DNA of 64,000 nt from Elusimicrobiaceae bacterium (lineage in GTDB: Bacteria; Elusimicrobiota; Elusimicrobia; Elusimicrobiales; Elusimicrobiaceae). A program made the position numbers and the translations under genes. The stretch spans positions 1 through 64,000 of the forward strand of contig JAFXUJ010000010.1 in assembly GCA_017525025.1 (NCBI GenBank), read 5' to 3'. Numbering within the stretch: position 1 is the stretch's first letter; each line of letters begins with the position of its first letter. The notes beneath the pieces were generated by a model that did no database searches, was not told where the DNA came from, and saw only the letters and a program-made list of their open reading frames with translations. This document shows, piece by piece, positions 10,621 through 27,730 of the stretch.

Positions 10621-10973
10621 AGAGTTTTCTCCGAAAATCTTACAATCATTTGGCTTAATTTTTTGTTATGGTTGGACTCCAGCAACTCGGCAAAATACCA
10701 CCCTTCCGGGCGTTGGGATAATTTAACTTCTATAAACGAGCCCGGTAAAACCGGGTTGATAAATTTAGCTTTTTTAATAGCTCTCACTTCTACCGATCGT
10801 CCTAACAAACGGCTGGCCGCGTCGCCGCAAAACGAGATATGACATACTGCCGGTAATAGCGGGTGCCCTTCAAAGTGGCCTTTAAAAGCCGGGAAATCTT
10901 CCCCCAATTTATATAAAACGCTATCACAAGTGGCTCTTTGATAACACGTTTTAACAGCCTCTTCTATAAACAT
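10617..10973 (-). CDS. Hotdog-fold 3-hydroxyacyl-ACP dehydratase, small (ApeI-like)
   Basis: The 118-residue product has the FabA/FabZ-type active-site block KGHFEGHPLLPAV. Its length and sequence suit the short ApeI-like dehydratases of APE clusters, which pair with a second dehydratase to create each new double bond. The second partner would be the gene at 14219-14665. It overlaps the lipoprotein gene upstream by 10 nt and the thioesterase downstream by 4 nt. Confidence 0.75.
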   Translation of the reverse strand: MFIEEAVKTCYQRATCDSVLYKLGEDFPAFKGHFEGHPLLPAVCHISFCGDAASRLLGRSVEVRAIKKAKFINPVLPGSFIEVKLSQRPEGWYFAELLESNHNKKLSQMIVRFSEKTL

Positions 10974-11380
10974 ATTCCTCCCGTTACTTCCAGCTCAAAT
11001 GTACCCCGTGCGACGCCGGATTGATGAATAATTTTCCGTTCCGGGCAAGAGATTAAAAATCGTTCACGCACCAATTCCCCCCAGGCACGAATCAACCGGT
11101 TCGGGATTTTGGCCGCACGCTCATGCACCTGTATTTGATCTTTTGATACCGTTAAATCTGCCAGTTTTAAAGCCGGTTCTGTTAAGATAATCACACGCGC
11201 TTGCGCGGAATTCGGATCGTATTGGCTAATCAGTGTAAAATAAAAACTCTGCGGTTGCAATACCCCGCTAGCCATAGAGGCCTCTTGCATGGAAACCGTT
11301 TTCGCCGGAACCGGGGCATATACCCAATGCGTTCCACAACCAAATAGAAAAATCAAACTGAGTCCAATTATTTTTTTCAT
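10964..11380 (-). CDS. Cluster lipoprotein of unknown function
   Basis: The 138-residue product begins MKKIIGLSLIFLFGCG, a lipoprotein signal with Cys at residue 15 as the lipidation site. The rest is mixed beta/alpha with no motif I recognise. Start chosen at ATG 11380, which overlaps the exporter stop by 4 nt and gives a clean signal sequence; an upstream in-frame start at 11491 would bury it. Position between exporter and dehydratase suggests a part in moving or anchoring the product at the envelope (inference). Confidence 0.7.
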   Translation of the reverse strand: MKKIIGLSLIFLFGCGTHWVYAPVPAKTVSMQEASMASGVLQPQSFYFTLISQYDPNSAQARVIILTEPALKLADLTVSKDQIQVHERAAKIPNRLIRAWGELVRERFLISCPERKIIHQSGVARGTFELEVTGGICL

Positions 11381-13638
11381 ACGCCATGCTTCCACAAAGA
11401 CGGCAATATAAATAATGATACCAATACCGTGCCCCCAATTCCAACTAATGCACAAATCCCCATCATAAACAAAACGGCATGTTTGGCACAAACAAGCACG
11501 CCAAAACCGGCTAACGTGGATAAACCGGCAGCCAGCAGGGCTCGCGCAGGGTATAACCGCATAAACTCTTCTTGCCGGGAACGATATTTTATCAACTGGA
11601 AAATCGCATAATCCAACCCCAAGCCGATAAGAAGCGGCAGGAAAATAAGTCCAAATAAATTAAGTTGTATCTTACACAAGGCCAAAAACCCAAACAGGAA
11701 ACTCCCCCCTAACAGGACGGGAATGAAACAAAGCAATGTTTCTTTTACGTTTCTAAATAATAACCACACAGCTATCAGATTCAACAACAAAGCCAAACAA
11801 ACTACTGTTATTGCCTCTTTTTTAACGCTTCGCACCAGATTTGTTTGCAACGCAGATCCGGAAATAAAAACAGTTTGTTTTCCATCGGCAAGTTGCGCAT
11901 AAGTAACTTCATTAGGAACTATATTGACCACCCCATACAGGGTATTTGAAATTTTAACTAACGGATTATACCAAGCGGAAAAATCAAACGAAGAAATTTC
12001 GGAAACGTTTTGCAACCACGTCCAAAAAGGAGCAAAGGCCTGCGTATTAAATCCTTTCTGTTGCGCGGCTGTTTGCAAGGAAAGTTGCACGGCATTTTGG
12101 CGCGACGAATCCCAAAACTTTTTCCAACGGTTCCAATTTCCTTCTCGGGTTTTGGCGGATACAAAAAGAGTTGCAAGAGGCAACCCATGAGGGACTTTTA
12201 AGGATACTAATTCATTGTTAACCAGAGCTTCTTCGGGCGTTTTGCCCAAGGCAAACAGCAAAGCTCCGCGGTTAGATGGGAATAGTCGTTCCGCGATTTG
12301 TTTATCTTTCACAAAGGCAGGAGAGGTGGAATTTAAATCGTTCAAGTCGGCACTTACCGACAAATGGGTAATACCCCAAATTCCAAATGCCAGCAAAAGA
12401 ATACTAACCCAAACCGCCCATCTAAAAGGTAAAGAATTGATCTCGGGCTGGCGGGTTTTCATACCGGAAAAAGCGGATATTCTAAAATAACCGGGTAATA
12501 CCCGTACAGATATGAAAAAGGCCAAAGACAACGCAATAAGGGCAAACACGGCGATTTGTCTAAACACTTCGATAGAAGAAAACAACAGCGCAATAAAACA
12601 CATACCCGAGGTTAAGAAATTACACCACAAATGTTTAGATATCTTAGATACGGCAGATTTAGCTTCTATCTTGGTTTGCTGTAAGGCAAAATAAATATAA
12701 ATAGCATAGTCTACCGATAATCCCACCACTACGCTGCCAAACCCCAATGTAATGCCGCTGATATGCCCGAAAATCAACTGTGTCATCCAAGCCGCCGGCG
12801 GAAGAACCAACAAAGGGAGCAAATACACCAGCAGAGCTCTTTTGGTGCGGAAAAAACATATAAAAATAAAGAGGAGACAAATAATCCCGGTTACACTGAC
12901 AACGAACAAATCCCGTTTAATGAGAGAGACATTTTCCAGCGTATAGCGCATTCCCCCTACAAAAAACGTACGCGCACCCGGTGGCAATGTCGCTTGCCGT
13001 TGAGTAAAAAACTGTTGGAGTTTTTGTGCGGCCTTGATATCGGATACCGCGGTAGCGGCATCATATAGCGCGGCCACTTCGTTTCCATGCTCATTGGACA
13101 AAAAACCATTTGTATAATTTAATGATTGCACCCCCTGCCCGATTTCGCGCCATTTATTCAATACAATTTCCGTTAAATTAAACGGATCTTGAGCCATTTT
13201 TTGAACAGTAAATATACTTTGAAATGAAAATAATTCCTCGTAGTAATTGGCAATTTGCCGGGTAATCACCGGCAAAGAGATTTTTTCTTCGGTTTCTTGT
13301 TGAATTTGGGGTGAAAAAAGGCCCGGCAAAGCAGAAAGAACATTTAACACCAAGTTATCCGTCGGCTGCGCCGGGAATTTAATAAAACCGGCCTGAGATA
13401 ATTCTTCCCGCACGCTCTCCGCTATTTCTTGGGCTTGTTCTTGGGAAGGAGCCTGTGTAATAACAATCAATTTTTGGCTAAGCGGAGAATGTTCAAAAAG
13501 GGAAACCGACTGTTTAATCGATTGAGGCACCAATGCCAGTATATTTTCTTCTACCGAGCCGCACCATACTCCTACTATGCCCACCAACATAAAAGCGACA
13601 AAACCCGTCAGTTTACCATGCCGGCGCCATATACTCAT
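11377..13638 (-). CDS. MMPL/RND-superfamily exporter of the APE-like cluster
   Basis: The 753-residue product is a two-fold-repeat RND-type protein. It has an N-terminal membrane segment (about 8-26), a periplasmic loop to ~240, and a five-to-six-helix bundle with VVGLSVDYAIYIYFA. A second loop is followed by a matching bundle with IGLGLDYAIFQL. The two GLxxDYA motifs are the conserved proton-relay helices. Proteins of this type are constant members of aryl polyene clusters and are thought to export the lipid-linked pigment across the inner membrane. It is coupled to the LolA-like gene by ATGA. Confidence 0.82.
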   Translation of the reverse strand: MSIWRRHGKLTGFVAFMLVGIVGVWCGSVEENILALVPQSIKQSVSLFEHSPLSQKLIVITQAPSQEQAQEIAESVREELSQAGFIKFPAQPTDNLVLNVLSALPGLFSPQIQQETEEKISLPVITRQIANYYEELFSFQSIFTVQKMAQDPFNLTEIVLNKWREIGQGVQSLNYTNGFLSNEHGNEVAALYDAATAVSDIKAAQKLQQFFTQRQATLPPGARTFFVGGMRYTLENVSLIKRDLFVVSVTGIICLLFIFICFFRTKRALLVYLLPLLVLPPAAWMTQLIFGHISGITLGFGSVVVGLSVDYAIYIYFALQQTKIEAKSAVSKISKHLWCNFLTSGMCFIALLFSSIEVFRQIAVFALIALSLAFFISVRVLPGYFRISAFSGMKTRQPEINSLPFRWAVWVSILLLAFGIWGITHLSVSADLNDLNSTSPAFVKDKQIAERLFPSNRGALLFALGKTPEEALVNNELVSLKVPHGLPLATLFVSAKTREGNWNRWKKFWDSSRQNAVQLSLQTAAQQKGFNTQAFAPFWTWLQNVSEISSFDFSAWYNPLVKISNTLYGVVNIVPNEVTYAQLADGKQTVFISGSALQTNLVRSVKKEAITVVCLALLLNLIAVWLLFRNVKETLLCFIPVLLGGSFLFGFLALCKIQLNLFGLIFLPLLIGLGLDYAIFQLIKYRSRQEEFMRLYPARALLAAGLSTLAGFGVLVCAKHAVLFMMGICALVGIGGTVLVSLFILPSLWKHGV

Positions 13639-14222
13639 TGAAATACCTCTGCTGAAAGATCGGGGTTAATTTGTGTTTGATTAAATTTCCACACGATAAA
13701 ATCACCGGAAGGTTCTTCCATCTTAACTTGTGTCACAACGCGCACGTCTTTTTCATCCAACCACACGGTAATTTTTTTGACTACTTTATGCTCTTTCAAC
13801 AGCGGCACAAAAGTAATTTTAGAACCGTTAAGCGTAATTTGGTAATTTTTTTGCAAGGAATCAAAATCAAGGGTTAGCCACACTAACATTTCCGCCATGA
13901 ACATACGTCCCATGGCAGATTCAACGGGCTTTTTAAGCGGACCTTGCAACCGATATACTTTCTCTTTTTCAATTAAAAAGCCATTTTCAAATGGTTTCTT
14001 ATATTGCCAACGCAGTTTTTGTGTATTTTTATCAAAAGCCAAAGTTCCCTCACTTTGAATGGGTTGGCTCAGTAAAGACAAATGTTTTTCTTCTGTAAAA
14101 TTACTTTGCAACGTTTGCACCGCGTTAATTTGTTTGGCATAGCTTTGCAACGAGGAAACTTCTTGCTGTGCCCAAGCAAGAGTAAAAAATAATCCCAAAA
14201 ATAAGCTTAAACCATATTTCAT
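13635..14222 (-). CDS. LolA-like periplasmic carrier
   Basis: The 195-residue product has a signal peptide ending LAWAQQ, then a LolA-type beta-barrel half-fold with SNFTEEKHLSLLSQPIQSEG and FDKNTQKLRWQYKKP. LolA relatives carry lipids or lipoproteins through the periplasm. In APE clusters this one is thought to hand the lipid-linked polyene from the MMPL exporter to the outer membrane. Start at ATG 14222 gives the signal peptide and overlaps the upstream stop by 4 nt. It is not necessarily the housekeeping LolA. Confidence 0.78.
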   Translation of the reverse strand: MKYGLSLFLGLFFTLAWAQQEVSSLQSYAKQINAVQTLQSNFTEEKHLSLLSQPIQSEGTLAFDKNTQKLRWQYKKPFENGFLIEKEKVYRLQGPLKKPVESAMGRMFMAEMLVWLTLDFDSLQKNYQITLNGSKITFVPLLKEHKVVKKITVWLDEKDVRVVTQVKMEEPSGDFIVWKFNQTQINPDLSAEVFQ

Positions 14223-14665
14223 AATGTTTGTGTGGGGGCTTTTCCTTGCCACATAAAAATATAGACGGTAACTTGTGCTAATTTAGTTCCGTTACAAAAA
14301 ATTTCCCCTCGTACAATGTGGGTATCAAAACATTCATCTATCTTTTCCGATTGAATTGTCAATCTGTCGCCGACGAGAGCCGAAGCAAAAACTTCCATGT
14401 CACGCAAGCTTGCCAAATATCCACCGCCATCTATGGTAAGTCCCTTTTGGGTACGTCTGTACGCTTCACACACACCAAAACCTTGTGCCACGAGTTCGCA
14501 ACAAGTTTCCGGCAGCAAGGTACCATCCGGACGTAAAAACAAGTGATCCGGCCCAATAAGTGCCTCTGCCGCCCCTGTTTTTTCTTGCACATCCAACACC
14601 CGGCTCACCCACAACATAGGGGGCCGGTGCGGAACAAGTGAAGTAACTTCAGGATATGTAGCCAT
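14219..14665 (-). CDS. Hotdog-fold dehydratase, ApeP-like
   Basis: The 148-residue product starts with VTSLVPHRPPMLWVSRVLD, where His is the catalytic residue position of FabZ/ApeP-type dehydratases. A conserved acidic helix follows (PETCCELVAQGFGV). It is expected to work as a heterodimer with the small dehydratase at 10617-10973 to dehydrate 3-hydroxyacyl-ACP. It lies 5 nt after the acyltransferase stop. Confidence 0.72.
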   Translation of the reverse strand: MATYPEVTSLVPHRPPMLWVSRVLDVQEKTGAAEALIGPDHLFLRPDGTLLPETCCELVAQGFGVCEAYRRTQKGLTIDGGGYLASLRDMEVFASALVGDRLTIQSEKIDECFDTHIVRGEIFCNGTKLAQVTVYIFMWQGKAPTQTL

Positions 14666-14670
14666 ATGAA

Positions 14671-15405
14671 TTAAAGTCTTTCTTTGGTTTCCTCGTTAAA
14701 AAAATCCATTATTTGTTTTTTGGCCGCTTGCGCCATGTGCAAATGGCCCAACTCGCCGACGTAATCTTTAGGGGACATCACCGGGAACATTTTAAGAACC
14801 AAGCGCGCCGGTTCAATCATTATCTTCCCAGCCGGAAGCATTTTTTGGGTACCGGCAATACCCACCGGCACCACCGGTAAATTAAGTTCCTTAGCCAAAT
14901 AAAACGCCCCGCTTTTAAATCTTGCTTGCGGGTCTTTGCGGGAACCCTGCGGAAAAAATACAATATCGCACCCCTTTTCCACCGCATTTTTGCACCGAGC
15001 TAATATTTCCTCGGGTGTCGTTGTTTCGGCATCTATGTAGCCGGCTCCATTCATTACGTAGCGGAAAAACGGCAACTTAAACACCCACCCCTTCGTGATA
15101 TAAACGATATTATCAAACCCGAAAGCACTAATCGTATACAAATCTATCGCCGACGCATGATTGGCTACAATCACACAACTTCCCGCGGGCCGGGTTTGTT
15201 TTTCCACGTGCAAACCTTTACTGGCCAAGCGTGCCAAAAAAACAATCCCGCGAGATTGAATATACACAAATTTACGCACGGCTCTATCCCGGTTGGAAAA
15301 GGTGAGCCATAAAAAAGGAGCTGCCAGGATAGTGGAAATAACCAGCCAACCGATTGCAGCCCCTCCAATAACAACGGTGTTAAAACCGGTACGTAAACAA
15401 TCCAT
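14671..15405 (-). CDS. PlsC-type 1-acylglycerol-3-phosphate acyltransferase
   Basis: The 244-residue membrane protein has an N-terminal helix (about 9-33) and the PlsC motifs NHASAIDLY (catalytic His and Asp) and FFPQGSRKD (acceptor binding). A third motif is VPVGIAGT. It transfers an acyl chain from ACP to a lysophospholipid-like acceptor. Inside this cluster it may attach the polyene to its membrane anchor, alongside the LpxL-type enzyme at 8113-9030. One nt separates it from the ACP gene. Confidence 0.78.
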   Translation of the reverse strand: MDCLRTGFNTVVIGGAAIGWLVISTILAAPFLWLTFSNRDRAVRKFVYIQSRGIVFLARLASKGLHVEKQTRPAGSCVIVANHASAIDLYTISAFGFDNIVYITKGWVFKLPFFRYVMNGAGYIDAETTTPEEILARCKNAVEKGCDIVFFPQGSRKDPQARFKSGAFYLAKELNLPVVPVGIAGTQKMLPAGKIMIEPARLVLKMFPVMSPKDYVGELGHLHMAQAAKKQIMDFFNEETKERL

Positions 15406-15406
15406 A

Positions 15407-15667
15407 TTATTGATGATGGGTTTTGGCTAGTTTTTCAATAAAATCATATAAATCATTTAAGGTAACGATTGTACGTAAATCATATCCTTGGCGCAAAGTA
15501 ACACCAAATTTCTGTTCCAATACAACCACCATATCTACCGCATCCAAACTATCCAAGCACAGATCATCTTTCAGTTGAGCCGTAGGCACCAGTTGCTCGT
15601 CTTTGAATTCAAACTCTTTTTTAAGAGCTTCATTTGTTTGTTTTATAATTTCTTCTCGTGTTATCAC
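15407..15667 (-). CDS. Acyl carrier protein 2 of the APE-like cluster
   Basis: The 86-residue product has the phosphopantetheine motif LCLDSLDAVDM. It overlaps the ketosynthase upstream by 4 nt. Two distinct ACPs, each adjacent to a different ketosynthase, is the arrangement seen in APE clusters. One ACP may take the starter and the other the extension steps; which is which cannot be read here. Confidence 0.83.
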   Translation of the reverse strand: MITREEIIKQTNEALKKEFEFKDEQLVPTAQLKDDLCLDSLDAVDMVVVLEQKFGVTLRQGYDLRTIVTLNDLYDFIEKLAKTHHQ

Positions 15668-16884
15668 AGGGGTCTCCTAAGAAGTAGCGAACAGTTATTA
15701 CCACCGATAGCAAAACTGTTCTTCATAATAATTTTTAAAGGGGTATTATTTATTTGTGTGTTATATTGTAAAGGAGCGCATCTCTCATCTACTTGGTTCA
15801 AATTACGAGTAGGTAAAATTTGTTGATTTCTTAACATTTCCACACAGGCAATACTCTCTAAACTGCCGCTTGCACCCATCGTATGACCGATATGGCCTTT
15901 TAAACTATTGATTTTTAAATTGCGGCCAAATACCTCACGGGCGGCTTGTGTTTCCGCAATATCACCGGCGATAGTGCCCGTGGCATGTGCGTTTAATAAA
16001 TCCACTTCTTCGGCCTTCACGTGCGCGGATTCCAACGCCCCTTCCATACATTTTTGTAATGTTTCGGCCGAAGGATATGCCATATTTTCCGTTTCGGTAT
16101 TAGCATAAAAGCCAAGTACTTCCGCCAAAATAGGCACCCCTCGTTTTAGTGCGCTTTGTTTAGTTTCCATAAACACCAAGCCACACCCTTCCGAAACTAC
16201 AAGCCCGGTCCGCGTAGCGTCAAACGGACGGCATGCCAAGGCCGGATTATCATTAGAATTTTTAGAGGTTGCCTGCATAATATCAAAGCAAGCACTAAAC
16301 ATGGGGTGGTATTCTTCCGTTCCGCCACACAAAGCTTGTGTAACAAGTCCTTGCCGAATAGCCAAAAATCCTAAGCCCATATTCATAAGCCCCGTTGCGC
16401 AAGCTTCACTTCCCCCCATAGCGGGGCCGTTTATTTTAAGGGCTTGACATACCGCCGCAAGCGGCGAATGATTCATAATTTGTAAAAAATCGGATGTTTT
16501 AATAAGCTCTAAGTGCGCCCCTTGGCTATACTTAGTAAGTTCCATCCACACGGAAATACTATTGAGCGTAGACCCCATAAAAAAGCCAAGTTGTTCGGGT
16601 GCTATCTCGTAACCGGCTTGTTTAAGTGCTTCTTGCGCGGCACAGTAGGCATATAAACCCATACGGCTCATGCTGCGGCGGTACTTGCGCGGGATAAAAG
16701 AGTAATCGGTATCCGGAACCGTGGCTGCCACTTTTGTATTCACCATGGGCAACGCTTCTAATTCTTGCACGGTATGTATACAATTTTTGGCAGATAACAA
16801 CCCCTCCCACAGGGTTTGCACACCCGCCCCATAAGGAGAAACTGCCCCCATTCCCGTAATGACTACCGCATTAGAATCGTCCAT
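15664..16884 (-). CDS. Beta-ketoacyl-ACP synthase 2 (FabF/ApeR-like)
   Basis: The 406-residue product has the full triad: Cys in GSEACATGLMN, His in NAHATGTIAGD, and His in KGHIGHTMGASG. Its placement next to the reductase and ACP2 suggests it does the first condensation of starter and malonyl-ACP, while the ketosynthase:chain-length-factor pair elongates. The ATG at 16884 has no Shine-Dalgarno. It sits 6 nt after an extended -10 box (16891-16899), so this gene may also be read from its own leaderless transcript inside the operon. Confidence 0.82.
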   Translation of the reverse strand: MDDSNAVVITGMGAVSPYGAGVQTLWEGLLSAKNCIHTVQELEALPMVNTKVAATVPDTDYSFIPRKYRRSMSRMGLYAYCAAQEALKQAGYEIAPEQLGFFMGSTLNSISVWMELTKYSQGAHLELIKTSDFLQIMNHSPLAAVCQALKINGPAMGGSEACATGLMNMGLGFLAIRQGLVTQALCGGTEEYHPMFSACFDIMQATSKNSNDNPALACRPFDATRTGLVVSEGCGLVFMETKQSALKRGVPILAEVLGFYANTETENMAYPSAETLQKCMEGALESAHVKAEEVDLLNAHATGTIAGDIAETQAAREVFGRNLKINSLKGHIGHTMGASGSLESIACVEMLRNQQILPTRNLNQVDERCAPLQYNTQINNTPLKIIMKNSFAIGGNNCSLLLRRPL

Positions 16885-16890
16885 ACTCGT

Positions 16891-16899
16891 ATTATAGCA
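16891..16899 (-). promoter_or_regulatory. Internal extended -10 promoter, leaderless start of ketosynthase 2
   Basis: On the minus strand TGC-TATAAT is followed by 6 nt and the ATG of the gene at 15664-16884. No good -35 is present, which an extended -10 can tolerate. Confidence 0.5.
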
Positions 16900-16915
16900 A
16901 TTTGCCGGCCGGCCA

Positions 16916-17647
16916 CTACATACAAATTCCGCCGTTTACCTGGAATGCCTGCCCCGTAATATAGGAAGCTTTTTCGGAACATAAAAAGGAAACCAAATGG
17001 GCCACTTCTTCGGGGCGCCCTAAACGGTGCAACGGAATGAGTGGCAAAATCTTATCTATGGGTAAGCCCTCTAACATATCCGTCTCAATAAACCCGGGTG
17101 AAACCGCATTGACCAAAATATTACGTTTGGCTACTTCGGCTGCCAGGCTGCGTGTAGCCCCCACAATACCGGCCTTAGCCGCCGAATAATTGGTTTGCCC
17201 CGGTACCGGAGCATGGGCCGCAGAAGAAGCAATATTCACAATCCGGCCTTGTTTGGCGCGGATCATAGCCGCTAAAACGGCCTTTGTAACATTATGAAAC
17301 CCACCCAACACCGTAGACAACACATCCGTCCACTCTTTATCTTGCATAAAAATAAGCAAATTATCTTTGCGGATCCCCGCATTGTTAACCAAAGCATAAG
17401 GAGTTTGCTTAGCCAAAAGCGGATTTAAGGCCTCTTGCACCGCTTTTGCGTCTGCCACATCAAAGGGAAGCAGGGTGCAATGAGCCCCCATATCTTCTAT
17501 GATTTTTTGTGCTTCTTGGGCGGCTCCATGATTGGAATGATAATTCAACCAAATATCAAAACCATCTTGAGCGAGCTGTTTGGCAATGGCTAAACCGATT
17601 CCGCGGCTGGCACCTGTAACCAGGGCAATCTTTCGGGGGGATGTCAT
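16916..17647 (-). CDS. 3-oxoacyl-ACP reductase (FabG-type)
   Basis: The 243-residue short-chain dehydrogenase has the NADPH-binding GASRGIG near the start, NNAGIRKD, and the catalytic Ser-Tyr-Lys set in NIASSAAH and YSAAKAG. It reduces each 3-ketoacyl-ACP to the 3-hydroxy form before dehydration. First gene of the cluster; AAGGAG lies 9 nt before its ATG and a promoter lies at 17679-17707. A housekeeping FabG would look similar, but the setting favours the polyene pathway. Confidence 0.82.
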
Positions 17648-17766: not shown

Positions 17767-20700
17767 TTATCTTCCGTTACGCCAACGGCGTTCTATTTCC
17801 TGCATCAACGTGTAATCTTTTTTCTTCGTTGAATAGGAACGCCTACTCGTAGAGCGCGTGGTGCTGGAACGCGTGCTGGTAGGACGCGTAGTGGTAGAGC
17901 GCGTGGTCGTAGAATAGGATCCCGCACGCTGCGTATACGTTACCGGCCGCGTCGTTGTAGAACGAGTGGTTGTCCTGCTACGAGTCGTAGGACTCGTCGT
18001 ATACGTTACCGGTCTCGCAGTGGTAGACCGCGTAGTCGTGGTTGTTCTGGTACGAGTGGCAGGGCTCGTTGTATACGTTACCGGCCGCGTCGTTGTAGAA
18101 CGAGTGGTTGTAGAGCGCGTAGTCGTAGAATAAGTTCCTGTGCGCTGATACGTTACCGGGCGCCCATTCGTCTTTGTAGACGTATTTTGCGGTTGATAAG
18201 AAGTTCTTTGTGTTCCGTACGGATAAGAAACTTGTTGCTTCTTATACTGATAATTTGTCCGTTGATAAGAAGGTTGTTGTTTCTTAGGCTGATAAGACGG
18301 TTGGTACGTTCCAGATTGGTAAGAAACGTTTTGTTTCCTTGTCTTAGACGCATGAGGAGCGGCACTTTCTCCACCAAACATATACCGCACACCCGCATGT
18401 AAGCCCCAACCGCTTAACTTATCACCTTTTTCATACGTACCTAAAGCATGCCAATATAAATTATCGGCCACTTGTACACTGGCTCCCGCGGCAACCTCAA
18501 TTCCTTTACCATTTAAGGAAGTTTTCGTGGAAGCGCCGCCGTATGACACTTTGCCTCTCCCGGCAAATTCCCGGTTATAAGCCAGTTCCACAAGCGGTTC
18601 TATTAACAAACCGTTGTTCAGTTTTCCTTTGTACGAAAGCAGGATGGCCGCGCGGCCTGTAATATGATTTTCAGCCGCATAAGATAGATTCCCCACGCCA
18701 TTGGTTACAGGCGTACTATCGGATCCCGCATGCATATAAGCAAGTTCCGCTTTCGGTTCCAGTTTTAGCCCGTGATCAATTTCGTACGTTTTTCCTGCTT
18801 CTGCGCTGGCAGCTAATAAATTACGGTTGCTATCAAACTTCAACACCGTGCTGCTTGCCGTGCGTGTTTTGTTTTCAATCTTAGTCCAGAAGTTACGCGC
18901 CGCCAAATCAACAAACCAACCGGTCTCATTGGCTAAGGTCGCATAGACACCAACTGCCGGCGCAGTACCTTCTCCGCTGTTACTTTCTCCGTTGCTATTC
19001 TTGGTTTTGATAGAAGGTGCCATTATGTATCCTATCATGACACCCGCGTAGAGCTTCGTCGGTTCATCGGCGTCAAAAAGCCAATCATACCCAGCCTCTA
19101 CCCCAAACAAAGACATATCTGTTTTAAGCAAGTCGTTGACCGTCATATCTTTGTAATACGAGCGAGCCCAAATACCTTGCTTATGTCCCAGTTCGTCCAT
19201 ATCGCGCAGTTCACCCATACGTTTATTAAGCGAATTCATCCCCGTCCGAGCTATAACCGCATTTAACATGGGAATGCTAGCCATCGTTTTCATGGCATCA
19301 CTAAATTCGCCCGTGGACCGCAAATAATAGTCCGGGTTGCCGTCATCTTGGAACAGTTTATACACATACCCGCCTTCGTCCCATTGTCCGCCGACCAGAT
19401 TAAATGTACCATTTCCGGTAGCGGTATCCGAAATATCTACCAGTTTGATGCCGTCGCCGGTTGTTGCCTGGGCAGTGGCAGCGGTGTTGTGTAACGCCAA
19501 CGTCGCATTGCCGTTATAACTGTCCGTAATTTGTAATTGGTCTGCCGTTTGGTTTTGTAAATTAACGCCCATTGAAATAAGCGCCCCATTGGCAGACAGA
19601 TTCTCTACAGCCACTGTGCTGGGGGCATTGTTTCCAAAGTGGAAAGTACCGTGACCTAAATTGGTAGTACCGCCAAGAGTATTATTACCATATACGTAGA
19701 GGTGTCCATTCCCCGAGTAATTGTTAAGTATGCCGCCGGCGGACAAATTAACTCTACCGCTATTGGTAACATCCGTAGCAGAACCGCCATTGTTGATGAA
19801 CTGAGTTCCACCGACTTTTATGGTTGCACTATTGGCCGTACCACCCGTTACAATTACCTGACTGCCGCCATTATTTACCGTTGTATTATTGGCGGTTGCA
19901 CTGAAAACGTATTGTTCCCCGCCGGAATTTACAATCGTACCACTGGCAATCGCCCCAACTCCCAAGTGTTGGGAAGCGGCATTGAGTACTGTATCGTTGG
20001 CAACCCCGCCGTTATAAACCTGTTGAGTACCACCGTTAAAAATCGTATGGTTGGCATCTCCACCTACAAGCTGGGTACCTTCAAATATCGTGGTGCTATT
20101 GGCTTCTCCTCCAATGCCAATTGTTTGACTTCCCCCACTACTTACAATAGTACTATTGGCTACACCGCCGACAAGTTGAGAACCATGAGCACTCACAACC
20201 GTGTTGTTTGCCGTAGCACCATCTAAAATCACTTGCGACCCGTAGGCATCTACATGTACGCCGTTGGCCACACCGCCGGAAGATATAACTTGGCTGCCCC
20301 GCTCCGCTATCAGCCCGGTGATTGTTCCTCCGCTGGCAACCCCGCCGGAAAGGATGGTTTGGATCCCGCCGCCGTTAACGGTGGTATCGATGGCTGTTCC
20401 GCCTTCGCTGACCAGTTGCACACCGCCACTATTTACAGTGGTATCACTTGTTACACCCACGGTATATAAAATCTGCGTTCCGCCGTCATTTACTTGCACA
20501 CCGGAGGTATATCCGTTCAACCGCACTACTTGTGAAGCGCCGTCCCCGATAGTCGTCCAGAACGCAGCACCGTTACTTTCTACATATTGCACGGTGCCTT
20601 CTCCCATCGCACTATTGTAATAAGCGCTACCACCGGCTAATACTTGGCTACCGCCTTGATAGATACTGGTATACCATGCTTCACCGCCAGTAGAAATATA

Positions 20701-23700
20701 CTGCCAACCGCCACTACTTAAGACGGTATTACTGGCCACGCCACCATTACTGATTATTTGGCTACCGCCACTGTTAATCACTGTACTGTTAGCTACACCG
20801 CCGTTACTGATGATTTGGCTACCGCTTGCGTTAATAATGGCATTATTGGCCACACCGCCATCATTAATTATTTGACTACCGTTTTCGTTGATAACGGTAT
20901 TATTGGCCAGGCCGCCATCATTGATTATTTGCCGACCATTGGCATAGATAGTTGTATCATCCGCCACGGCCCCGTTAACCGTTTGAACACCGCCGGCAGA
21001 TATTTGTGTATCCGTGGCCGTAGCCCCTGCGTAAAGGATTTGCGAACCTCTTACTGTTGCACCGGTGGCCGATCCGCCATTAAAAACTTTTTGGTAGCCA
21101 CCTGCTTCTATCAAAGTACCTGCTGCAATTCCGCCGGACACGTCTTGCGTACCTTGATTGCTTACGATTGTATTACTGGCTGTACCACCGGTTTGGACTA
21201 CTTGTTGGCCGCCATCGCTGACAATTGTTCCATAAGCCGTTGCACCGCTATACACGCGCTGTCTTCCTGCATAACCGATAATGACATCACTAGCAGTAGC
21301 ACCTATCTCAATAGCTTGGCTTCCGCCGGATCCTATTATACCCCCGCTAGCCGTTCCACCGTATGAAATGACTTGAACAGAGCTTGTACCGGACACCGTA
21401 GTATTATTTGCCACGCCGCCGGAAGAAACGTGTTGCACACCTCCCGCACTGACGTACGTATTATTGGCCACACCACCACTACGTACCATTTGGTAGCCAT
21501 TATTTTTTATTTGCGCATTATTGGCAATACCACCACTAAAAACATCTTGTCCGCCACCGGATAAAACTGTACCGTTGGCCGTTCCACCCGTTCCGACTCG
21601 CTGACCGGCACCGGTATAAACAATCGTATCATCCGCAATACCGCCGGTAGATACCCATTGTACTGCACTGTTGGCCAATAATTCCACCCCGGAAACATAC
21701 CCAAACACACGTTGTGAACCGTACGAACTGACGGTTACATCATAGGCCGATCCACCCGCATTGATTACTTGTGAACCACCGGAGTTGATCGTCGTTGAGT
21801 TTGCGTTTCCGGCTACTTCTTGCAAACCGCCGTTATTGATTGTGGCATGGTTGGCGACCCCACCGGCGTAAATAGATTGATAGCCGTCACTATTGATAGT
21901 AGTGTGATTAGCCGTACCGCCACTTAACACATACTGGCTACCACCTAAAACGGTATTTTCGTCAATCACACCATCTGAAACGTAATAATTTCCACCGGGA
22001 TCTACGATCGTTCCGTTTATGATAGCCCCCGCTGCGGCATATAAATTTCCGCCATCCATAACGGTATTGTTATTGGCCGTGCCGCCGTTTGATACATATT
22101 GATTACCACCACTCAATACACTTGTATAGTTTGCACTACCACCGGTCAAAATGGTTTGTGAACCGCCCGAACTGACTGTTGTACTAGTTGCTTGACCACC
22201 GCTTGAAACAATTTGATGTCCGCCGTTGCTGATACTGGTGCCACTTACAGAACCGCCATTAAAAATATTTTGCTGGCCGCCGGAGCTGATTATTGTATCA
22301 CTTGCTTTACCGCCGTTCCAAACATTTTGCTGTCCGCCGCTATAAATAACCGTACCGGTTGTTCTGCCTCCGTTGTTAAGACTTTGTACCCCGCCGGCAT
22401 ACACGTATGTGCTTACTGCTGAACCGTTGTTGTTAACCGATTGTGAACCGCTGTTGCTAATGTACGTATTACTTGCAACACCACCGGCCAGGATAGTCGC
22501 ATGTCCACCGGAATTGATAATTGTACTGTTTGCAACACCACCGCCGGAAATGATCTGAGCAGCCCCACTGTTGATCGTTACGTGTGTCGCCGTACCACCA
22601 TAAACGTGTTGTTGCGTATTACCACCGACACCACTCATGGTCACATTGTTTGCCGAACCGCCGGCAGAAATGGTTTGGAATCCGCCATTGTTAACAGTTA
22701 CATTTTCTGCTACACCGCCACTTAAAATCTGTTGCGCAGCCGTGGTGCCGGTAACGGTTGTGTTTGTTGCCGAGCCGCCATTGCTGACAGTTTGATATCC
22801 GCCACTCACAGTTGTAGAATCTGCTACACCGCCTAATAAAATGTTTTGCCGACCGTTCCTAACGATTGTCCCGATTGCCTGGCCACCGTTTGAAACATAT
22901 TGATAACCGCTATTGGTAATTGTTGTACTTGTTGCAACACCACCGGACAAAACGTCTTGGATACCTCCGCTTACCTTGACATTGAATGTAGAGCCGGCAT
23001 TGTCTTGCAAACCACCGGAATGGATAATTGTGCTATTTGCCAAACCGCCAAAGTATACAGATTGATAGCCGCCGCTGTTTATAGTAGTATTATTGGCTAT
23101 GCCACCGGATAAAACATATTGATAAGAACTATCGTTTAATGTAGTATTATTATCTATGGCACCGCTTGAAACATATTCGCTACCGTTGGAATTGATTATC
23201 GTACCATTAATTACGGCACCACTTACGACGTGTACAGCACCACCATTATCTACTGTGTTATGATTGGCAGAACCGCCGCTTGAAACAAATTGATGAGCTC
23301 CATTCGTAACGGAAGTATAGTTAGCCGTACCGCCGCTTGTAATAAACTGTGACCCGCCGCTGTTAACCAGTGTACTGTTTGCAACGCCACCGTTTGAAAT
23401 AATTTGCGAACCGCCACCGCTGACAATTGTATGATTCGCAGTACCGCCATTTGAAATAATTTGTGAACCGCCGGAGCTAATATGAGTACTGATTGCCGAA
23501 CCGCCGTTTGAAATGTGTTGCTCGCCGCCAATATTAATGATTGTACTTGTCGCAAGCCCGCCGGCCAAAATGTTTTGTCTGGCACTGACGCCACTTAACA
23601 TTGCTACAAATGCACTACCTCCTACATCCTGAAGGCCATAACTGTTTATAAATGTACTGTTGGCTAAACCGCCATAAGATACAATTTGGTGGCCGCTGGA

Positions 23701-25014
23701 GTTTACTGTGGTGCTGTTGGTTATACCGCCGTTTAAAACATATTGTACACCACCGCTGTTTAGTGTAGTACCGTTAACGGTTGCACCGCTTGAAACATAT
23801 TCACTACCGCCGGAATAAACCACATCGCCATTAACTATGGCACCGTCTGCAACAAATAAGTTACCGCCTTCATATACGCTATTATGATTGGCGGTAGCAC
23901 CACTTGAAATGTATTGATTGCCACCGTTTAAAATATCGGTATAATCTGCACTACCACCACTTAAAATAGTTTGTGAACCGCCGGAGCTGACGATTGTGCT
24001 AACTGCATGACCGCCATTGGAAACGGTTTGCTGGCCACCAGAACTAATGGTAGTGTTACTTGCACGCCCACCATTGAAAATGTTTTGCTGACCACCGGAA
24101 TTAACGGTTGTACCACTTACGTCTCCGCCGCTATAAATATGTTGTTCGCCACCGTTATAAATATGGGTACCAATTGTAGTCCCACCGTTATTAATTTTTT
24201 GTATCCCGCCGGCATACACGTATGTGCTTACTGCTGAACCGTTGTTGTTAACCGATTGTGAACCGCTGTTGCTAATGTACGTATTACTTGCAATACCACC
24301 GGCCAGGATAGTCGCATGTCCACCGGAATTGATAATTGTACTGTTCGCGACACCCCCGCCGGAAATGATCTGAGCAGCCCCACTGTTGATCGTTACGTGT
24401 GTCGCCGTACCACCATAAACGTGTTGTTGCGTATTACCACCAACACCACTCATGGTCACATTGTTTGCCGAACCGCCGGCAGAAATGGATTGGAATCCGC
24501 CGTTGTTAACAGTCACATTTTCTGCTACACCGCCACTTAAAATTTGTTGTGTAGCCGTGGTGCCGGTAACGGTTGTGTTTGTTGCCGAGCCGCCATTATA
24601 AACAACTTGTCGCCCCCCACCAATGACTGCCGTGCTAATAGCATGACCGCCGGAATAAATTCCTTCTAAACCGTTTGTATAAACACTCGTTCCTTGCGTA
24701 GTCCCATATACGTACACGCTGATTCCCGAAGATGCTTGCAAATTGTTACTTGTCTGCCCGGCCTCTACTATAATTTCTGCCCCATGTACCGGAAGTGGTA
24801 TATTGTTAGCCAACATGGCCCCTATGGTAGCCGTATAAACAGCGCGCCGTCCGCCATCATAAATACGCGATACGATACGGTATCCCATTCCATGGCTGGA
24901 TACACAGCACGAGCTTACTACCGCTGCGCTGCAGCTAGAACAATATTCTTGCTCCAACGCTTGCACGCAAGCACTGGAATAAATATTCTCAATTTTAGGG
25001 GCATGGTTAGACAT
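17767..25014 (-). CDS. Giant AIDA-type self-associating autotransporter
   Basis: The product has 2415 residues. Residues 1-42 hold six Cys; a possible signal sequence follows (Arg-rich at 46-57, hydrophobic 58-75). Residues ~110-1780 are tandem ~19-21-residue strand-loop-strand repeats of the type GGxANxTxINSGGxQ, the O-heptosylation targets of AIDA-I/TibA-like passengers; I estimate about 80. A pertactin-like stabilising region (QWDEGGYVYKLFQDDGN) leads to a beta-barrel at ~1948-2213 ending VRYMF. A further 202 Thr/Arg/Ser/Tyr/Gln-rich residues follow the barrel, which is abnormal for this class. Start at ATG 25014 overlaps the heptosyltransferase stop (TAATG) and has AGGAG, so both are made from one mRNA. 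Likely role: glycosylated surface adhesin. Confidence 0.88.
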   Translation of the reverse strand: MSNHAPKIENIYSSACVQALEQEYCSSCSAAVVSSCCVSSHGMGYRIVSRIYDGGRRAVYTATIGAMLANNIPLPVHGAEIIVEAGQTSNNLQASSGISVYVYGTTQGTSVYTNGLEGIYSGGHAISTAVIGGGRQVVYNGGSATNTTVTGTTATQQILSGGVAENVTVNNGGFQSISAGGSANNVTMSGVGGNTQQHVYGGTATHVTINSGAAQIISGGGVANSTIINSGGHATILAGGIASNTYISNSGSQSVNNNGSAVSTYVYAGGIQKINNGGTTIGTHIYNGGEQHIYSGGDVSGTTVNSGGQQNIFNGGRASNTTISSGGQQTVSNGGHAVSTIVSSGGSQTILSGGSADYTDILNGGNQYISSGATANHNSVYEGGNLFVADGAIVNGDVVYSGGSEYVSSGATVNGTTLNSGGVQYVLNGGITNSTTVNSSGHQIVSYGGLANSTFINSYGLQDVGGSAFVAMLSGVSARQNILAGGLATSTIINIGGEQHISNGGSAISTHISSGGSQIISNGGTANHTIVSGGGSQIISNGGVANSTLVNSGGSQFITSGGTANYTSVTNGAHQFVSSGGSANHNTVDNGGAVHVVSGAVINGTIINSNGSEYVSSGAIDNNTTLNDSSYQYVLSGGIANNTTINSGGYQSVYFGGLANSTIIHSGGLQDNAGSTFNVKVSGGIQDVLSGGVATSTTITNSGYQYVSNGGQAIGTIVRNGRQNILLGGVADSTTVSGGYQTVSNGGSATNTTVTGTTAAQQILSGGVAENVTVNNGGFQTISAGGSANNVTMSGVGGNTQQHVYGGTATHVTINSGAAQIISGGGVANSTIINSGGHATILAGGVASNTYISNSGSQSVNNNGSAVSTYVYAGGVQSLNNGGRTTGTVIYSGGQQNVWNGGKASDTIISSGGQQNIFNGGSVSGTSISNGGHQIVSSGGQATSTTVSSGGSQTILTGGSANYTSVLSGGNQYVSNGGTANNNTVMDGGNLYAAAGAIINGTIVDPGGNYYVSDGVIDENTVLGGSQYVLSGGTANHTTINSDGYQSIYAGGVANHATINNGGLQEVAGNANSTTINSGGSQVINAGGSAYDVTVSSYGSQRVFGYVSGVELLANSAVQWVSTGGIADDTIVYTGAGQRVGTGGTANGTVLSGGGQDVFSGGIANNAQIKNNGYQMVRSGGVANNTYVSAGGVQHVSSGGVANNTTVSGTSSVQVISYGGTASGGIIGSGGSQAIEIGATASDVIIGYAGRQRVYSGATAYGTIVSDGGQQVVQTGGTASNTIVSNQGTQDVSGGIAAGTLIEAGGYQKVFNGGSATGATVRGSQILYAGATATDTQISAGGVQTVNGAVADDTTIYANGRQIINDGGLANNTVINENGSQIINDGGVANNAIINASGSQIISNGGVANSTVINSGGSQIISNGGVASNTVLSSGGWQYISTGGEAWYTSIYQGGSQVLAGGSAYYNSAMGEGTVQYVESNGAAFWTTIGDGASQVVRLNGYTSGVQVNDGGTQILYTVGVTSDTTVNSGGVQLVSEGGTAIDTTVNGGGIQTILSGGVASGGTITGLIAERGSQVISSGGVANGVHVDAYGSQVILDGATANNTVVSAHGSQLVGGVANSTIVSSGGSQTIGIGGEANSTTIFEGTQLVGGDANHTIFNGGTQQVYNGGVANDTVLNAASQHLGVGAIASGTIVNSGGEQYVFSATANNTTVNNGGSQVIVTGGTANSATIKVGGTQFINNGGSATDVTNSGRVNLSAGGILNNYSGNGHLYVYGNNTLGGTTNLGHGTFHFGNNAPSTVAVENLSANGALISMGVNLQNQTADQLQITDSYNGNATLALHNTAATAQATTGDGIKLVDISDTATGNGTFNLVGGQWDEGGYVYKLFQDDGNPDYYLRSTGEFSDAMKTMASIPMLNAVIARTGMNSLNKRMGELRDMDELGHKQGIWARSYYKDMTVNDLLKTDMSLFGVEAGYDWLFDADEPTKLYAGVMIGYIMAPSIKTKNSNGESNSGEGTAPAVGVYATLANETGWFVDLAARNFWTKIENKTRTASSTVLKFDSNRNLLAASAEAGKTYEIDHGLKLEPKAELAYMHAGSDSTPVTNGVGNLSYAAENHITGRAAILLSYKGKLNNGLLIEPLVELAYNREFAGRGKVSYGGASTKTSLNGKGIEVAAGASVQVADNLYWHALGTYEKGDKLSGWGLHAGVRYMFGGESAAPHASKTRKQNVSYQSGTYQPSYQPKKQQPSYQRTNYQYKKQQVSYPYGTQRTSYQPQNTSTKTNGRPVTYQRTGTYSTTTRSTTTRSTTTRPVTYTTSPATRTRTTTTTRSTTARPVTYTTSPTTRSRTTTRSTTTRPVTYTQRAGSYSTTTRSTTTRPTSTRSSTTRSTSRRSYSTKKKDYTLMQEIERRWRNGR
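17770..18375 (-). repeat. Low-complexity basic tail coding region of the autotransporter
   Basis: This encodes the 202 residues beyond the barrel's final Phe. The first third is Gln/Tyr/Lys-rich (SYQPKKQQPSYQ type). The rest is an imperfect array of TTTRSTTTRPVTYT-like units with repeated PVTYT. The last ~20 residues (KKKDYTLMQEIERRWRNGR) are not repetitive. Confidence 0.8.
22389..22782. repeat. 394-bp direct repeat, copy 1, inside the autotransporter gene
   Basis: Nearly identical to 24204-24597. The offset is 1815 bp, exactly 605 codons, so recombination between copies would keep the frame. Both encode the same run of strand-loop-strand repeats, including TMSGVGGNTQQHVYGG. Confidence 0.85.
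24204..24597. repeat. 394-bp direct repeat, copy 2, inside the autotransporter gene
   Basis: Second copy of the repeat at 22389-22782, with only scattered base differences, which suggests a recent duplication or gene conversion within the passenger. Confidence 0.85.
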
Positions 25015-26360
25015 TATTTATTCTCCTGTTTTTTGTTCTTGGGGGCAGTCAAATGATGATCTTTCATAAGTTGCTTAATATGTCCAATGACTTGCTTACC
25101 CGTAATCAAACGGGTGCATTCAAATTGGCGGTCTGTGCCTTTAAACTTCGGGCACCAAAAATAATCATAGTGATCAAAATTGCAATGGATATCATCCCAA
25201 CAGCCGTTACAACCATGGGAGTTAAACACACGGTAGGGCGTGTAAAATTCGCATATTGGCAAAGAAAATCCGCTAATTAAAATCACCGGCACATGTGTAC
25301 ACCAGGCCAACCATGAAAGACCTGAGCCGAGGCCTATAAAGAAATCGGCATGCTCCAACAGTTCAATGCGTTCCTGCAACGGTCTGGCTCCGGTAAAATC
25401 TTCCGCTTCGTGCGGCATACGGTTCCATGTAAAATTGGAGCCGGTTACAGCGTCTTTATCAATACATAACACGCGGTAACCCAACTCTTTTAAATAGTGC
25501 ACTACTTGTTCCCACCCGAAGCCATTGTTCCACATTTTAGCCTGAGAGCTGGCCTTGGTGGCGATACACACATAACGCTCTTTGATTTTACGCGGGCTAC
25601 CCAGTTTTACCCGAGGGGCTTCTTCGCGCGGATCTACTCCTAAAATAAATCCGGCCGTCCGGTGCAACCCCACTTTGCGGAAATCAATGGGCTGATTAGT
25701 TGTATTTCCCCGGAAGAACAAACCCAACATGTAGCTGGCATACGGTTTTTCAAACCGCGGTTTGCCGGGCAAATGGGTAAAAAACAAATTAGGATATTGG
25801 GCTTCAAAAATTTCCGCCATATTGTGAGCCATGGCTACTTCCGCCACGCACTGATGTTTTTCTTGGAAACGATTGGCATACGTCATCCAGCCGATCGTAT
25901 CTCCCAACGTACCGACGGGAAATTTCAATTGTACTTCTTTGCCTTTCAAACTAAGGGTGTGGTTTAAAACCGGGGTTTTCTTTCCGCGTTCCCATACACG
26001 AATACGGAAAGGAATATAATATTTCTTCGTGCTTAACACCCACCCTTCATCCGCATCACAAGCAAAAATAATATTGTCTGTTTCATCATCTTCAATCTGT
26101 ACGTGCCATTTTCCTTTGGGTAGTAATACCCGGGCCCCATCGTTAAAATCAAAACGAATACCCATAGGTCCTTCTTGAGTCGGAATTGCCGGAATGTCTA
26201 TCAAAAAAGGATTTTGCGGATTTGGTTTTTGCTCGCTATTTACGGCAGCGGTTACATCTTGTGGGGCCTGACTAGCAGAAGCAGCAGTTGCCACTCCTTG
26301 AGATTGTATAGATGATTGAATAGAAGTATTATTCACTTGCGGGGTTTTTTCTTCCGGCAT
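25014..26360 (-). CDS. Autotransporter strand-loop-strand O-heptosyltransferase (TibC/Aah-like)
   Basis: The 448-residue product belongs to the bacterial autotransporter heptosyltransferase family. Visible signs are GTLGDTIGWM near residue 150, a GT-B-like C-terminal half with FIGLGSGLSWLAWC, and the Cys set CNGCWDDIHC plus WCP, which in TibC binds iron and holds the dodecamer together. The family transfers heptose from ADP-heptose onto Ser/Thr of strand-loop-strand repeats in the cytosol. The first ~65 residues are low-complexity and probably disordered. Start at ATG 26360 (AGAGGA 5 nt upstream) rather than 26387. It precedes and is coupled to its presumed substrate at 17767-25014. ADP-heptose genes are not in the window. 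Confidence 0.88.
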   Translation of the reverse strand: MPEEKTPQVNNTSIQSSIQSQGVATAASASQAPQDVTAAVNSEQKPNPQNPFLIDIPAIPTQEGPMGIRFDFNDGARVLLPKGKWHVQIEDDETDNIIFACDADEGWVLSTKKYYIPFRIRVWERGKKTPVLNHTLSLKGKEVQLKFPVGTLGDTIGWMTYANRFQEKHQCVAEVAMAHNMAEIFEAQYPNLFFTHLPGKPRFEKPYASYMLGLFFRGNTTNQPIDFRKVGLHRTAGFILGVDPREEAPRVKLGSPRKIKERYVCIATKASSQAKMWNNGFGWEQVVHYLKELGYRVLCIDKDAVTGSNFTWNRMPHEAEDFTGARPLQERIELLEHADFFIGLGSGLSWLAWCTHVPVILISGFSLPICEFYTPYRVFNSHGCNGCWDDIHCNFDHYDYFWCPKFKGTDRQFECTRLITGKQVIGHIKQLMKDHHLTAPKNKKQENK

Positions 26361-26478
26361 ATGGTTCCTCTTTTTTTTAGAATACACGCAACCCTGGTTT
26401 GCGCGCGTACGATATCTCCCTTCATTGTATCATAAAAAATATGAGAATACACAATTTTAAAATAAAATATTCCGCTTA

Positions 26479-26557: not shown

Positions 26558-27730
26558 ATGAGAAAAAATTTATACCTATTATCTATTTTTGTGTTGTTTA
26601 CCGTTGTCCCCCTCCGGGCACAAACCGGCAATGCGCTTGTGCCTGCCGGAAAAAGCCTTGCCGCAGGCGTTCGAGCAACGTCTCGTTTACCCGCTGCCGG
26701 ACAAGCTACGCTTGTTTCTACGGAAAAAGTTACTCACTCCGCAGCTAACGCACAACGTGGCGCAAAAGCAGCGGCGGACATGGCTGCCGGCCACCCTCAC
26801 ACATCCGTCGGATCGGCTCCGTCTGCCAATACTTTCAACCCGGGTAACGGGAATTCTGCTTTAAATACGGCCCGTATCCAACCGCCATCCTCCATGCCGA
26901 AAATTGATTTTCCTGCCCAAGCGGCCCCAAATTTCAGGCCGGCACAATGGGCACAAGATTTAATTACACCGGACACACCGGTCCAAATTGCCACAACGCT
27001 CAAATTGCTGGCTACGCATTGGAACCACATCCGTGTCTCTAAATCCAAATTTACCGAAGAACAACTGGCCCGGGTAGACGAAGCCGAAAAATACTTTTTA
27101 AGTTTAACACCCGAACAAGCCAACGATATCAACGTTATTTCTTCCGCCGAATTCCGGGGGAATGCCATGGTACTCCGCTCACCCACAGCTACTCAGTATG
27201 GTTATTTTTTTACGGGGTACCGCCTTCAAGAGGAATACATGAATCGTGTTCCTAATGAATCAGGATATATCCCCGTCTATATTGGTGAACCCAAAAACGG
27301 ATTTGGCAGGTGGGATATGCGCTCCTTAATACCATCCCCCAACAAAACCAACCGCCCGATTTTTGTACAACTGGATATCCATGGAGGAATCAATTCGTTG
27401 GAAAGATTTCATGCCGGGATCAATATCTCCCGCACGATATCTACGGAAGAAATTGTACGCGCCATGCAAGACTTACGCCAACTGACCGGAGCCCCCGAAG
27501 TTAATCTTTTTGTAGACTCCTGTTGTACAGGTGGATTTTTAGATGAATTTGAAGCGTTGCCTTTATCCCAGCGCCAAGGTATCAATGTATTTGTTCCAAC
27601 GGGAGCCGGCCAATGTACCGCGCTATCAGCTACGGTCCATTATCGTACGCATACACCGGGAAACGACATTGCCAAGGACCTGGTAGAGAAAATGATTAGG
27701 CAAATCATAGAGGGACACATTATGCCTTAA
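26558..27730 (+). CDS. Exported caspase-like (clan CD) protein, ended by an in-frame stop
   Basis: The 390-residue product has a signal peptide (MRKNLYLLSIFVLF, cleavage after RAQ) and a low-complexity Ala/Pro/Ser linker to ~125. A C-terminal region has the clan CD signature: His275-Gly-Gly in QLDIHGG and Cys322 in FVDSCCTGG, each after a hydrophobic strand. That pattern marks caspase/legumain/gingipain-type cysteine peptidases; cleavage specificity is unknown. AAAGGG precedes the ATG. The TAA at 27728-27730 is followed in the same frame by 119 more sense codons (27731-28090), so the protein is either truncated by one nonsense change or extended by readthrough. Confidence 0.72.
   Translation: MRKNLYLLSIFVLFTVVPLRAQTGNALVPAGKSLAAGVRATSRLPAAGQATLVSTEKVTHSAANAQRGAKAAADMAAGHPHTSVGSAPSANTFNPGNGNSALNTARIQPPSSMPKIDFPAQAAPNFRPAQWAQDLITPDTPVQIATTLKLLATHWNHIRVSKSKFTEEQLARVDEAEKYFLSLTPEQANDINVISSAEFRGNAMVLRSPTATQYGYFFTGYRLQEEYMNRVPNESGYIPVYIGEPKNGFGRWDMRSLIPSPNKTNRPIFVQLDIHGGINSLERFHAGINISRTISTEEIVRAMQDLRQLTGAPEVNLFVDSCCTGGFLDEFEALPLSQRQGINVFVPTGAGQCTALSATVHYRTHTPGNDIAKDLVEKMIRQIIEGHIMP

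What the first reader, a model, noticed from the sequence alone, without database searches (positions are those of the whole stretch)
17770..18375. 202-residue basic low-complexity tail beyond the autotransporter barrel
Classical autotransporters end in a barrel whose C-terminal aromatic residue is the BAM signal. Here VRYMF is followed by 202 residues: a Gln/Tyr/Lys-rich part, an array of TTTRSTTTRPVTYT-like units, and a charged terminal helix. The tail would face the periplasm and could bind peptidoglycan or DNA-like polyanions, or replace the BAM signal. No precedent is known to me.
Basis: partly seen in the sequence, partly recalled or inferred. Interest (0 to 1): 0.7.

Follow-up and report, generated by a model that had tools for sequence, protein, structure and literature searches.

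The report
Autotransporter with exchangeable periplasmic tail
A giant, probably sugar-coated surface adhesin of a gut-type Elusimicrobium bacterium really does carry 202 extra, positively charged residues after its membrane barrel, and in its relatives the same spot holds either similar charged tails or a known cell-wall-binding domain, which suggests that the tail helps tether the adhesin to the cell wall.

Summary
ORF 25014..17767(-), 2415 aa, has AIDA-type repeats, a canonical type Va barrel ending HAGVRYMF, then 202 residues (17770-18375). It is no assembly error: close relatives in Elusimicrobiaceae carry tails of 5-229 aa at exactly this point. The tails are of two kinds: an OmpA (PF00691, peptidoglycan-binding) domain on a linker, or disordered basic sequence. 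22 of 23 non-OmpA tails are net positive and none is negative; OmpA linkers at the same place are not basic. The window's tail ends in a helix motif, DYTLMQEIERRWRNGR, shared with three other species whose barrels are not one clade; it was found on no other protein of the phylum. Other PF03797 barrels of the genus end at the usual aromatic residue. The BAM beta-signal is intact just before the tail, so the tail does not replace it. The gene is coupled to a TibC/Aah heptosyltransferase. Best reading: a periplasmic tether, probably electrostatic to peptidoglycan, standing in for an OmpA domain. This function is inferred, not shown. Precedents: 12 alpha-tails among about 1500 type Va autotransporters, and SLH/OmpA domains on trimeric autotransporters. 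New variant of a known kind.

The parts
17770..18375 (-). 202-residue C-terminal tail, net charge +33, predicted disordered except its end
   Evidence: Translation and composition; AlphaFold pLDDT about 30-40 over model residues 346-529
18166..18375 (-). Tail part 1: Gln/Tyr/Lys-rich, about 70 residues (YQPSYQPKKQQPSYQ...)
   Evidence: Sequence
17833..18165 (-). Tail part 2: Thr/Ser/Arg array of TTTRSTTTRPVTYT-like units, about 111 residues
   Evidence: Sequence; tandem repeat 17932-18111, 72-bp unit x2.6
17770..17832 (-). Terminal motif STKKKDYTLMQEIERRWRNGR, predicted helix
   Evidence: Shared with tails of G060, G038, G003 and weakly G033, on no other protein of the genus; leave-one-out test; helix 531-541
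18376..18399 (-). Intact beta-signal HAGVRYMF in the last barrel strand
   Evidence: Alignment; consensus from PMC10945584; strand E329-342
18376..19401 (-). Autotransporter translocator: helix plug and 12-strand barrel region (PF03797)
   Evidence: PF03797 E 1.5e-26; BrkA 3QQ2 and EspP 3SLT/3SLO best by fold
19402..24780 (-). Passenger: AIDA-type strand-loop-strand repeats, heptosylation-target type
   Evidence: PF16168 22 stretches; TIGR04415 O_hepto_targRPT 46 stretches, E 2e-276
24781..25014 (-). Long conserved Cys-rich N-terminal leader (ENIYSSACVQALEQEYCSSCSAAVVSS...) followed by a signal-peptide-like stretch
   Evidence: Conserved in relatives; no Pfam or NCBIfam match; AGGAG before the ATG
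25014..26387 (-). TibC/Aah-type autotransporter heptosyltransferase; its stop overlaps the autotransporter's start codon (TAATG)
   Evidence: PF21129 E 7e-34; TIGR04414 576.7 bits against cut-off 200; PDB 4RAP/4RB4 E about 1e-169; junction

Best explanation
The tail is a genuine C-terminal periplasmic extension of an AIDA-I/TibA-like, probably heptosylated, type Va autotransporter in Elusimicrobiaceae. The barrel's own beta-signal takes it to BAM; after insertion the C-terminus of the last strand points into the periplasm and the tail hangs there. In this barrel subfamily the point after the last strand is a place where tails are exchanged: some members have an OmpA domain, others, like this one, a disordered polycationic strand, sometimes ending in a short helix. 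The most likely work of the basic tail is to hold the large surface adhesin to the cell wall, by charge attraction to peptidoglycan's carboxylates and perhaps by docking of the terminal helix on a periplasmic partner. Shown by computation: the tail, its fixed position, its alternation with OmpA, its positive bias, the conserved end motif, the intact beta-signal. Inferred: periplasmic location (from barrel topology). Hypothesis: peptidoglycan binding.
For: Relatives at the same point carry OmpA tails, PF00691 E 2e-17, 6e-19, 5e-11, 2e-12, one with the canonical GHTD...LSxxRA residues (L020/L036). Non-OmpA tails: 22 of 23 net positive, 0 negative, median +0.16 per residue; OmpA linkers median -0.02, 12 of 21 negative; Mann-Whitney p 4e-7, not corrected for kinship. 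OmpA and basic tails interleave on the barrel tree. Other PF03797 barrels in the genus end at F/W. The last strand ends at F342, the tail is disordered, with a terminal helix. OmpA/SLH domains on trimeric autotransporters were proposed to bind peptidoglycan (PMC7549365).
Against: No binding data. Tail length and sequence are hardly conserved; the sister barrel L041 has only 12 residues. Only 3 tree-independent pairs were available, so the basic-versus-OmpA contrast is not significant once kinship is allowed for. Three close OmpA tails (L011, L015, L016) have Cys, and L013 Ser, where the peptidoglycan-binding Asp is expected, so even those may not bind in the classical way.
Confidence: 0.5

Rival explanations
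1. The tail is a near-neutral, slippage-grown low-complexity extension that is tolerated because the barrel's C-terminus faces the periplasm; only the short GG-plus-basic start matters, or nothing does.
For: Tail lengths run from 5 to 229 aa and the middle parts are unrelated; the window's array is a DNA tandem repeat; the sister L041 has 12 aa.
Against: 22 of 23 tails net positive and none negative; the end motif is kept on four barrels that are not one clade (AU p 6e-29) and beats all shuffles; OmpA domains sit at the same place.
Confidence: 0.22
2. The terminal motif DYsxMxxIExxW is a docking peptide for a specific periplasmic partner (chaperone, BAM/TAM part, or an OmpA/Pal-like protein that itself holds the wall), and the basic stretch is mainly a spacer.
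For: The motif is the most conserved part of otherwise unrelated tails, always at the very C-terminus and on no other protein found; predicted helix; the genome has four PF00691 proteins that could serve.
Against: Most basic tails lack it; no partner identified.
Confidence: 0.2
3. The tail takes over or modulates BAM recognition.
For: It lies after the usual C-terminal aromatic residue.
Against: The beta-signal HAGVRYMF is intact and conserved; relatives with 5-aa tails or OmpA domains have the same last strand.
Confidence: 0.04
4. Assembly error, frameshift, or fusion with a downstream gene.
For: None found.
Against: Tails in many separately assembled genomes at the same residue; shared end motif; GC3 as in the barrel.
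Confidence: 0.02
5. The Ser/Thr-rich tail is a glycosylation target of the neighbouring TibC-type enzyme or of another transferase.
For: 85 of 202 residues are Ser or Thr; a coupled TibC-type gene.
Against: TibC acts on the beta-helical passenger (PMC4358343); the TIGR04415 target repeats were found in the passenger; most other basic tails are not Thr-rich.
Confidence: 0.04

Closest known systems
AIDA-I/TibA/Ag43 self-associating autotransporters with Aah/TibC heptosyltransferase (type Va)
   Same: Strand-loop-strand repeats of the heptosylation-target type, coupled TibC/Aah enzyme, PF03797 barrel
   Different: 202-residue tail after the barrel; a different, long Cys-rich leader; phylum Elusimicrobiota
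Trimeric autotransporters of Veillonella and Streptobacillus with C-terminal SLH, coiled-coil or OmpA domains (PMC7549365)
   Same: Extra periplasmic domain after the anchor, proposed to bind peptidoglycan
   Different: Those are type Vc trimers (YadA anchor); here a monomeric 12-strand barrel, and in the window a disordered basic tail in place of a domain
Type Va autotransporters with a short alpha-tail (12 sequences in a set of about 1500, PMC3419190)
   Same: A segment after the beta-motif, thought to be periplasmic, helical
   Different: Short there; here up to 229 residues, basic or OmpA-bearing, and usual within one barrel clade
OmpA (barrel plus peptidoglycan-binding domain)
   Same: Membrane barrel followed by a periplasmic part; relatives carry PF00691 itself
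   Different: 8-strand non-secreting barrel; the window's tail has no PF00691

Membership tests
Type Va autotransporter | PF03797 12-strand translocator at the C-terminal side | tested here: met
   PF03797 E 1.5e-26; BrkA/EspP/AIDA-I by fold
Type Va autotransporter | Barrel is the last domain, ending in an aromatic residue (usual, not strictly defining: 12 alpha-tail members are published) | tested here: not met
   202 residues follow MF; the aromatic beta-signal is kept internally; alpha-tails in PMC3419190. This is why it is called a variant
Type Va autotransporter | Secreted beta-helical passenger | tested here: inconclusive
   AIDA/TIGR04415 repeats found; secretion itself not testable
TibC/Aah heptosylated autotransporters (BAHT systems) | Coupled TibC/Aah heptosyltransferase | tested here: met
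   TIGR04414 576.7 bits, PDB 4RAP; genus: present in all 12 genomes with a well-matched barrel of this family and in 1 of the other 54
TibC/Aah heptosylated autotransporters (BAHT systems) | Passenger is heptosylated | not testable with these tools
   Only target-type repeats shown
OmpA-domain proteins (PF00691) | PF00691 domain | tested here: not met
   No Pfam match in the window's tail; met in relatives L011, L013, L015, L016
Peptidoglycan-binding tail | Binds peptidoglycan | not testable with these tools
   Only indirect evidence

The most novel reading that the evidence does not exclude
In Elusimicrobiaceae a monomeric autotransporter barrel carries an exchangeable periplasmic anchor at its C-terminus, and a folded OmpA domain has repeatedly been swapped with disordered polycationic tails, some with a dedicated C-terminal docking helix, as an alternative way to fasten a surface adhesin to peptidoglycan.
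Probability: 0.4. Interest if true: 0.62.

Novelty: new variant of a known kind. Interest (0 to 1): 0.47.

Why it matters
Textbook type Va autotransporters end at the barrel. A clade in which the barrel routinely carries a periplasmic tail, alternating between OmpA domains and disordered basic sequence, would show how very large adhesins are fastened to the wall, and offers a natural set for asking whether a disordered polycation can do the work of a folded peptidoglycan-binding domain. It also warns that tools which require a C-terminal aromatic residue will miss such proteins.

Tried and rejected
First genome-contig scan with the single barrel found nothing; the alignment found 17 loci. Terminal-motif hits outside the genus (G189, G190, G111; E 0.001-0.006) lie inside coiled-coil or helical-repeat proteins, not at C-termini, and were rejected as chance. 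Frameshift/assembly error, BAM-signal replacement and tail glycosylation were considered and rejected or set low. The basic-versus-OmpA contrast corrected for kinship had too few independent pairs to decide. A first automatic class call mislabelled L008 and L013; corrected by Pfam and by hand before the tree. No paper in the library holds both PF03797 and PF00691. A frame error in coordinates cost; a first motif script failed on an option clash.

Full report
What is there. The window lies in a 1.55-Mb genome; named relatives of its barrel are Elusimicrobium/Elusimicrobiaceae genomes assembled from metagenomes, several from rumen or gut samples. ORF 25014..17767 on the minus strand encodes 2415 aa. 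After a barrel ending ...GWGLHAGVRYMF come exactly 202 residues, codons 18375..17770: about 70 Gln/Tyr/Lys-rich residues, about 111 residues of Thr/Ser/Arg units (a DNA tandem repeat, 72-bp unit), and the end STKKKDYTLMQEIERRWRNGR.

The protein is an AIDA-I/TibA-type autotransporter. The passenger matches PF16168 (22 stretches) and TIGR04415, the O-heptosylation-target repeat (46 stretches). The barrel matches PF03797 at E 1.5e-26, and its model is closest to EspP and BrkA, with AIDA-I also among the hits. The gene overlaps by one base with an upstream TibC/Aah heptosyltransferase gene (TIGR04414 576.7 bits; PDB 4RAP/4RB4 E about 1e-169). In the genus, TibC was found in all 12 genomes that hold a well-matched barrel of this family (two of these barrels are only partial, at contig ends) and in 1 of the other 54. 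Published TibC/Aah enzymes heptosylate the passenger of such autotransporters (PMC4358343); heptosylation here is inferred.

The tail is real. Searches with the barrel found relatives in 39 of 341 genomes of the phylum. In the related subclade of 20 barrels (support 85/94) none stops directly at the barrel's last residue; tails of the close relatives run from 5 to 229 aa. Other PF03797 barrels of the same genus, fetched as a control, end at the usual aromatic residue. So the tail belongs to one barrel family and is neither a general habit of the genome nor an assembly error.

Two kinds of tail. Among 45 barrels on the tree, 20 bear an OmpA domain, 17 a non-OmpA tail (13 long, 4 short) and 8 none. 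OmpA assignments were checked with Pfam for L011, L013, L015 and L016 and by phmmer against solved structures for L020/L036 and L016; the others rest on sequence motifs read by eye and pattern. OmpA and basic tails interleave: L036 (OmpA) is sister to L004 (15 aa), and the window is sister to L041 (12 aa). All states together need 12 changes against 21.6 in shuffles. Of 23 non-OmpA tails, 22 are net positive and none negative (median +0.16 per residue), while the linkers before OmpA domains are on average neutral to acidic (median -0.02); p 4e-7, but not corrected for kinship, and only three independent pairs exist, all or nearly all in the same direction.

The end motif. The last residues of the window's tail recur in G060 (DYSLMEEIERGWREGK), G038 (DYSFMQSIEKRWIEEQK) and G003 (DFSYMQQLEQQWHEENK), with a weak form in G033. 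Left out in turn, each of the four scores 15.7-27.1 bits against a model of the other three, above all of 3000 shuffles. Their barrels are not one clade (AU p 6e-29), so the motif is either old and often lost, or has moved between barrels. It was found on no other protein of the genus or, credibly, of the phylum.

Topology and BAM. AlphaFold puts the last strand at residues 329-342 of the modelled piece, ending at the Phe of RYMF; the tail has pLDDT about 30-40, apart from the terminal helix 531-541 at moderate confidence. HAGVRYMF fits the beta-signal consensus quoted in PMC10945584. By the known topology of such barrels, the C-terminus faces the periplasm (inference). A second model, of the OmpA-tailed relative L020, shows the same barrel, a disordered linker and a partly confident OmpA-like domain.

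Function. The alternation with OmpA domains, the positive charge where OmpA is missing, and the periplasmic position together make wall tethering the best explanation. It is not shown. A caution: three close OmpA tails have Cys, and one Ser, at the place of the Asp that binds diaminopimelate in classical OmpA (the role of that residue is from general knowledge of the family).

Precedents. Celik et al. 2012 saw 12 sequences with a short alpha-tail after the barrel's beta-motif and placed it in the periplasm (PMC3419190). The 2020 Veillonella study describes trimeric autotransporters with C-terminal SLH or coiled-coil domains, and with OmpA in Streptobacillus, and suggests peptidoglycan binding (PMC7549365). 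I found no paper on monomeric autotransporters with OmpA or long basic tails in the library, which holds open-access papers only. I therefore rate this a new variant of a known kind.

Noticed in passing
window 24781-25014 (-): Unusually long, conserved, Cys-rich leader (ENIYSSACVQALEQEYCSSCSAAVVSSC..G.GxRxxSRIYxGGRxAxYTAT) before the signal-peptide-like stretch in this and most related autotransporters; no Pfam or NCBIfam match. It may be a new kind of extended signal peptide.
   Followed up: partly
window 6673-17647 (-): A cluster beside the autotransporter with two ketoacyl synthases, an acyl carrier protein-like gene, dehydratase- and thioesterase-like genes, acyltransferases, LolA, an MMPL exporter and a glycosyltransferase looks like an aryl-polyene-type pathway.
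   Followed up: partly
L011, L015, L016, L013 (OmpA tails): OmpA-type domains of close relatives have Cys (GYTCDLG, GYACDLG, AYTCNLG) or Ser in place of the usual Asp of GHTD.
   Followed up: partly
window 21969-24083 (-): Long internal direct repeats in the passenger (300-nt unit in 4 copies, 60-68% identity to the reference copy; 169-nt pair at 73%), which could allow length changes by recombination.
   Followed up: no
window 26558-27730 (+): 390-residue ORF next to the TibC-type gene, on the other strand, without a Pfam or NCBIfam match.
   Followed up: no
L057 and L048 (G293, G291): Very long tails (over 330 and about 500 aa, open at the locus end) with extra or repeated sequence between barrel and OmpA part in a distant family of the phylum.
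   Followed up: no
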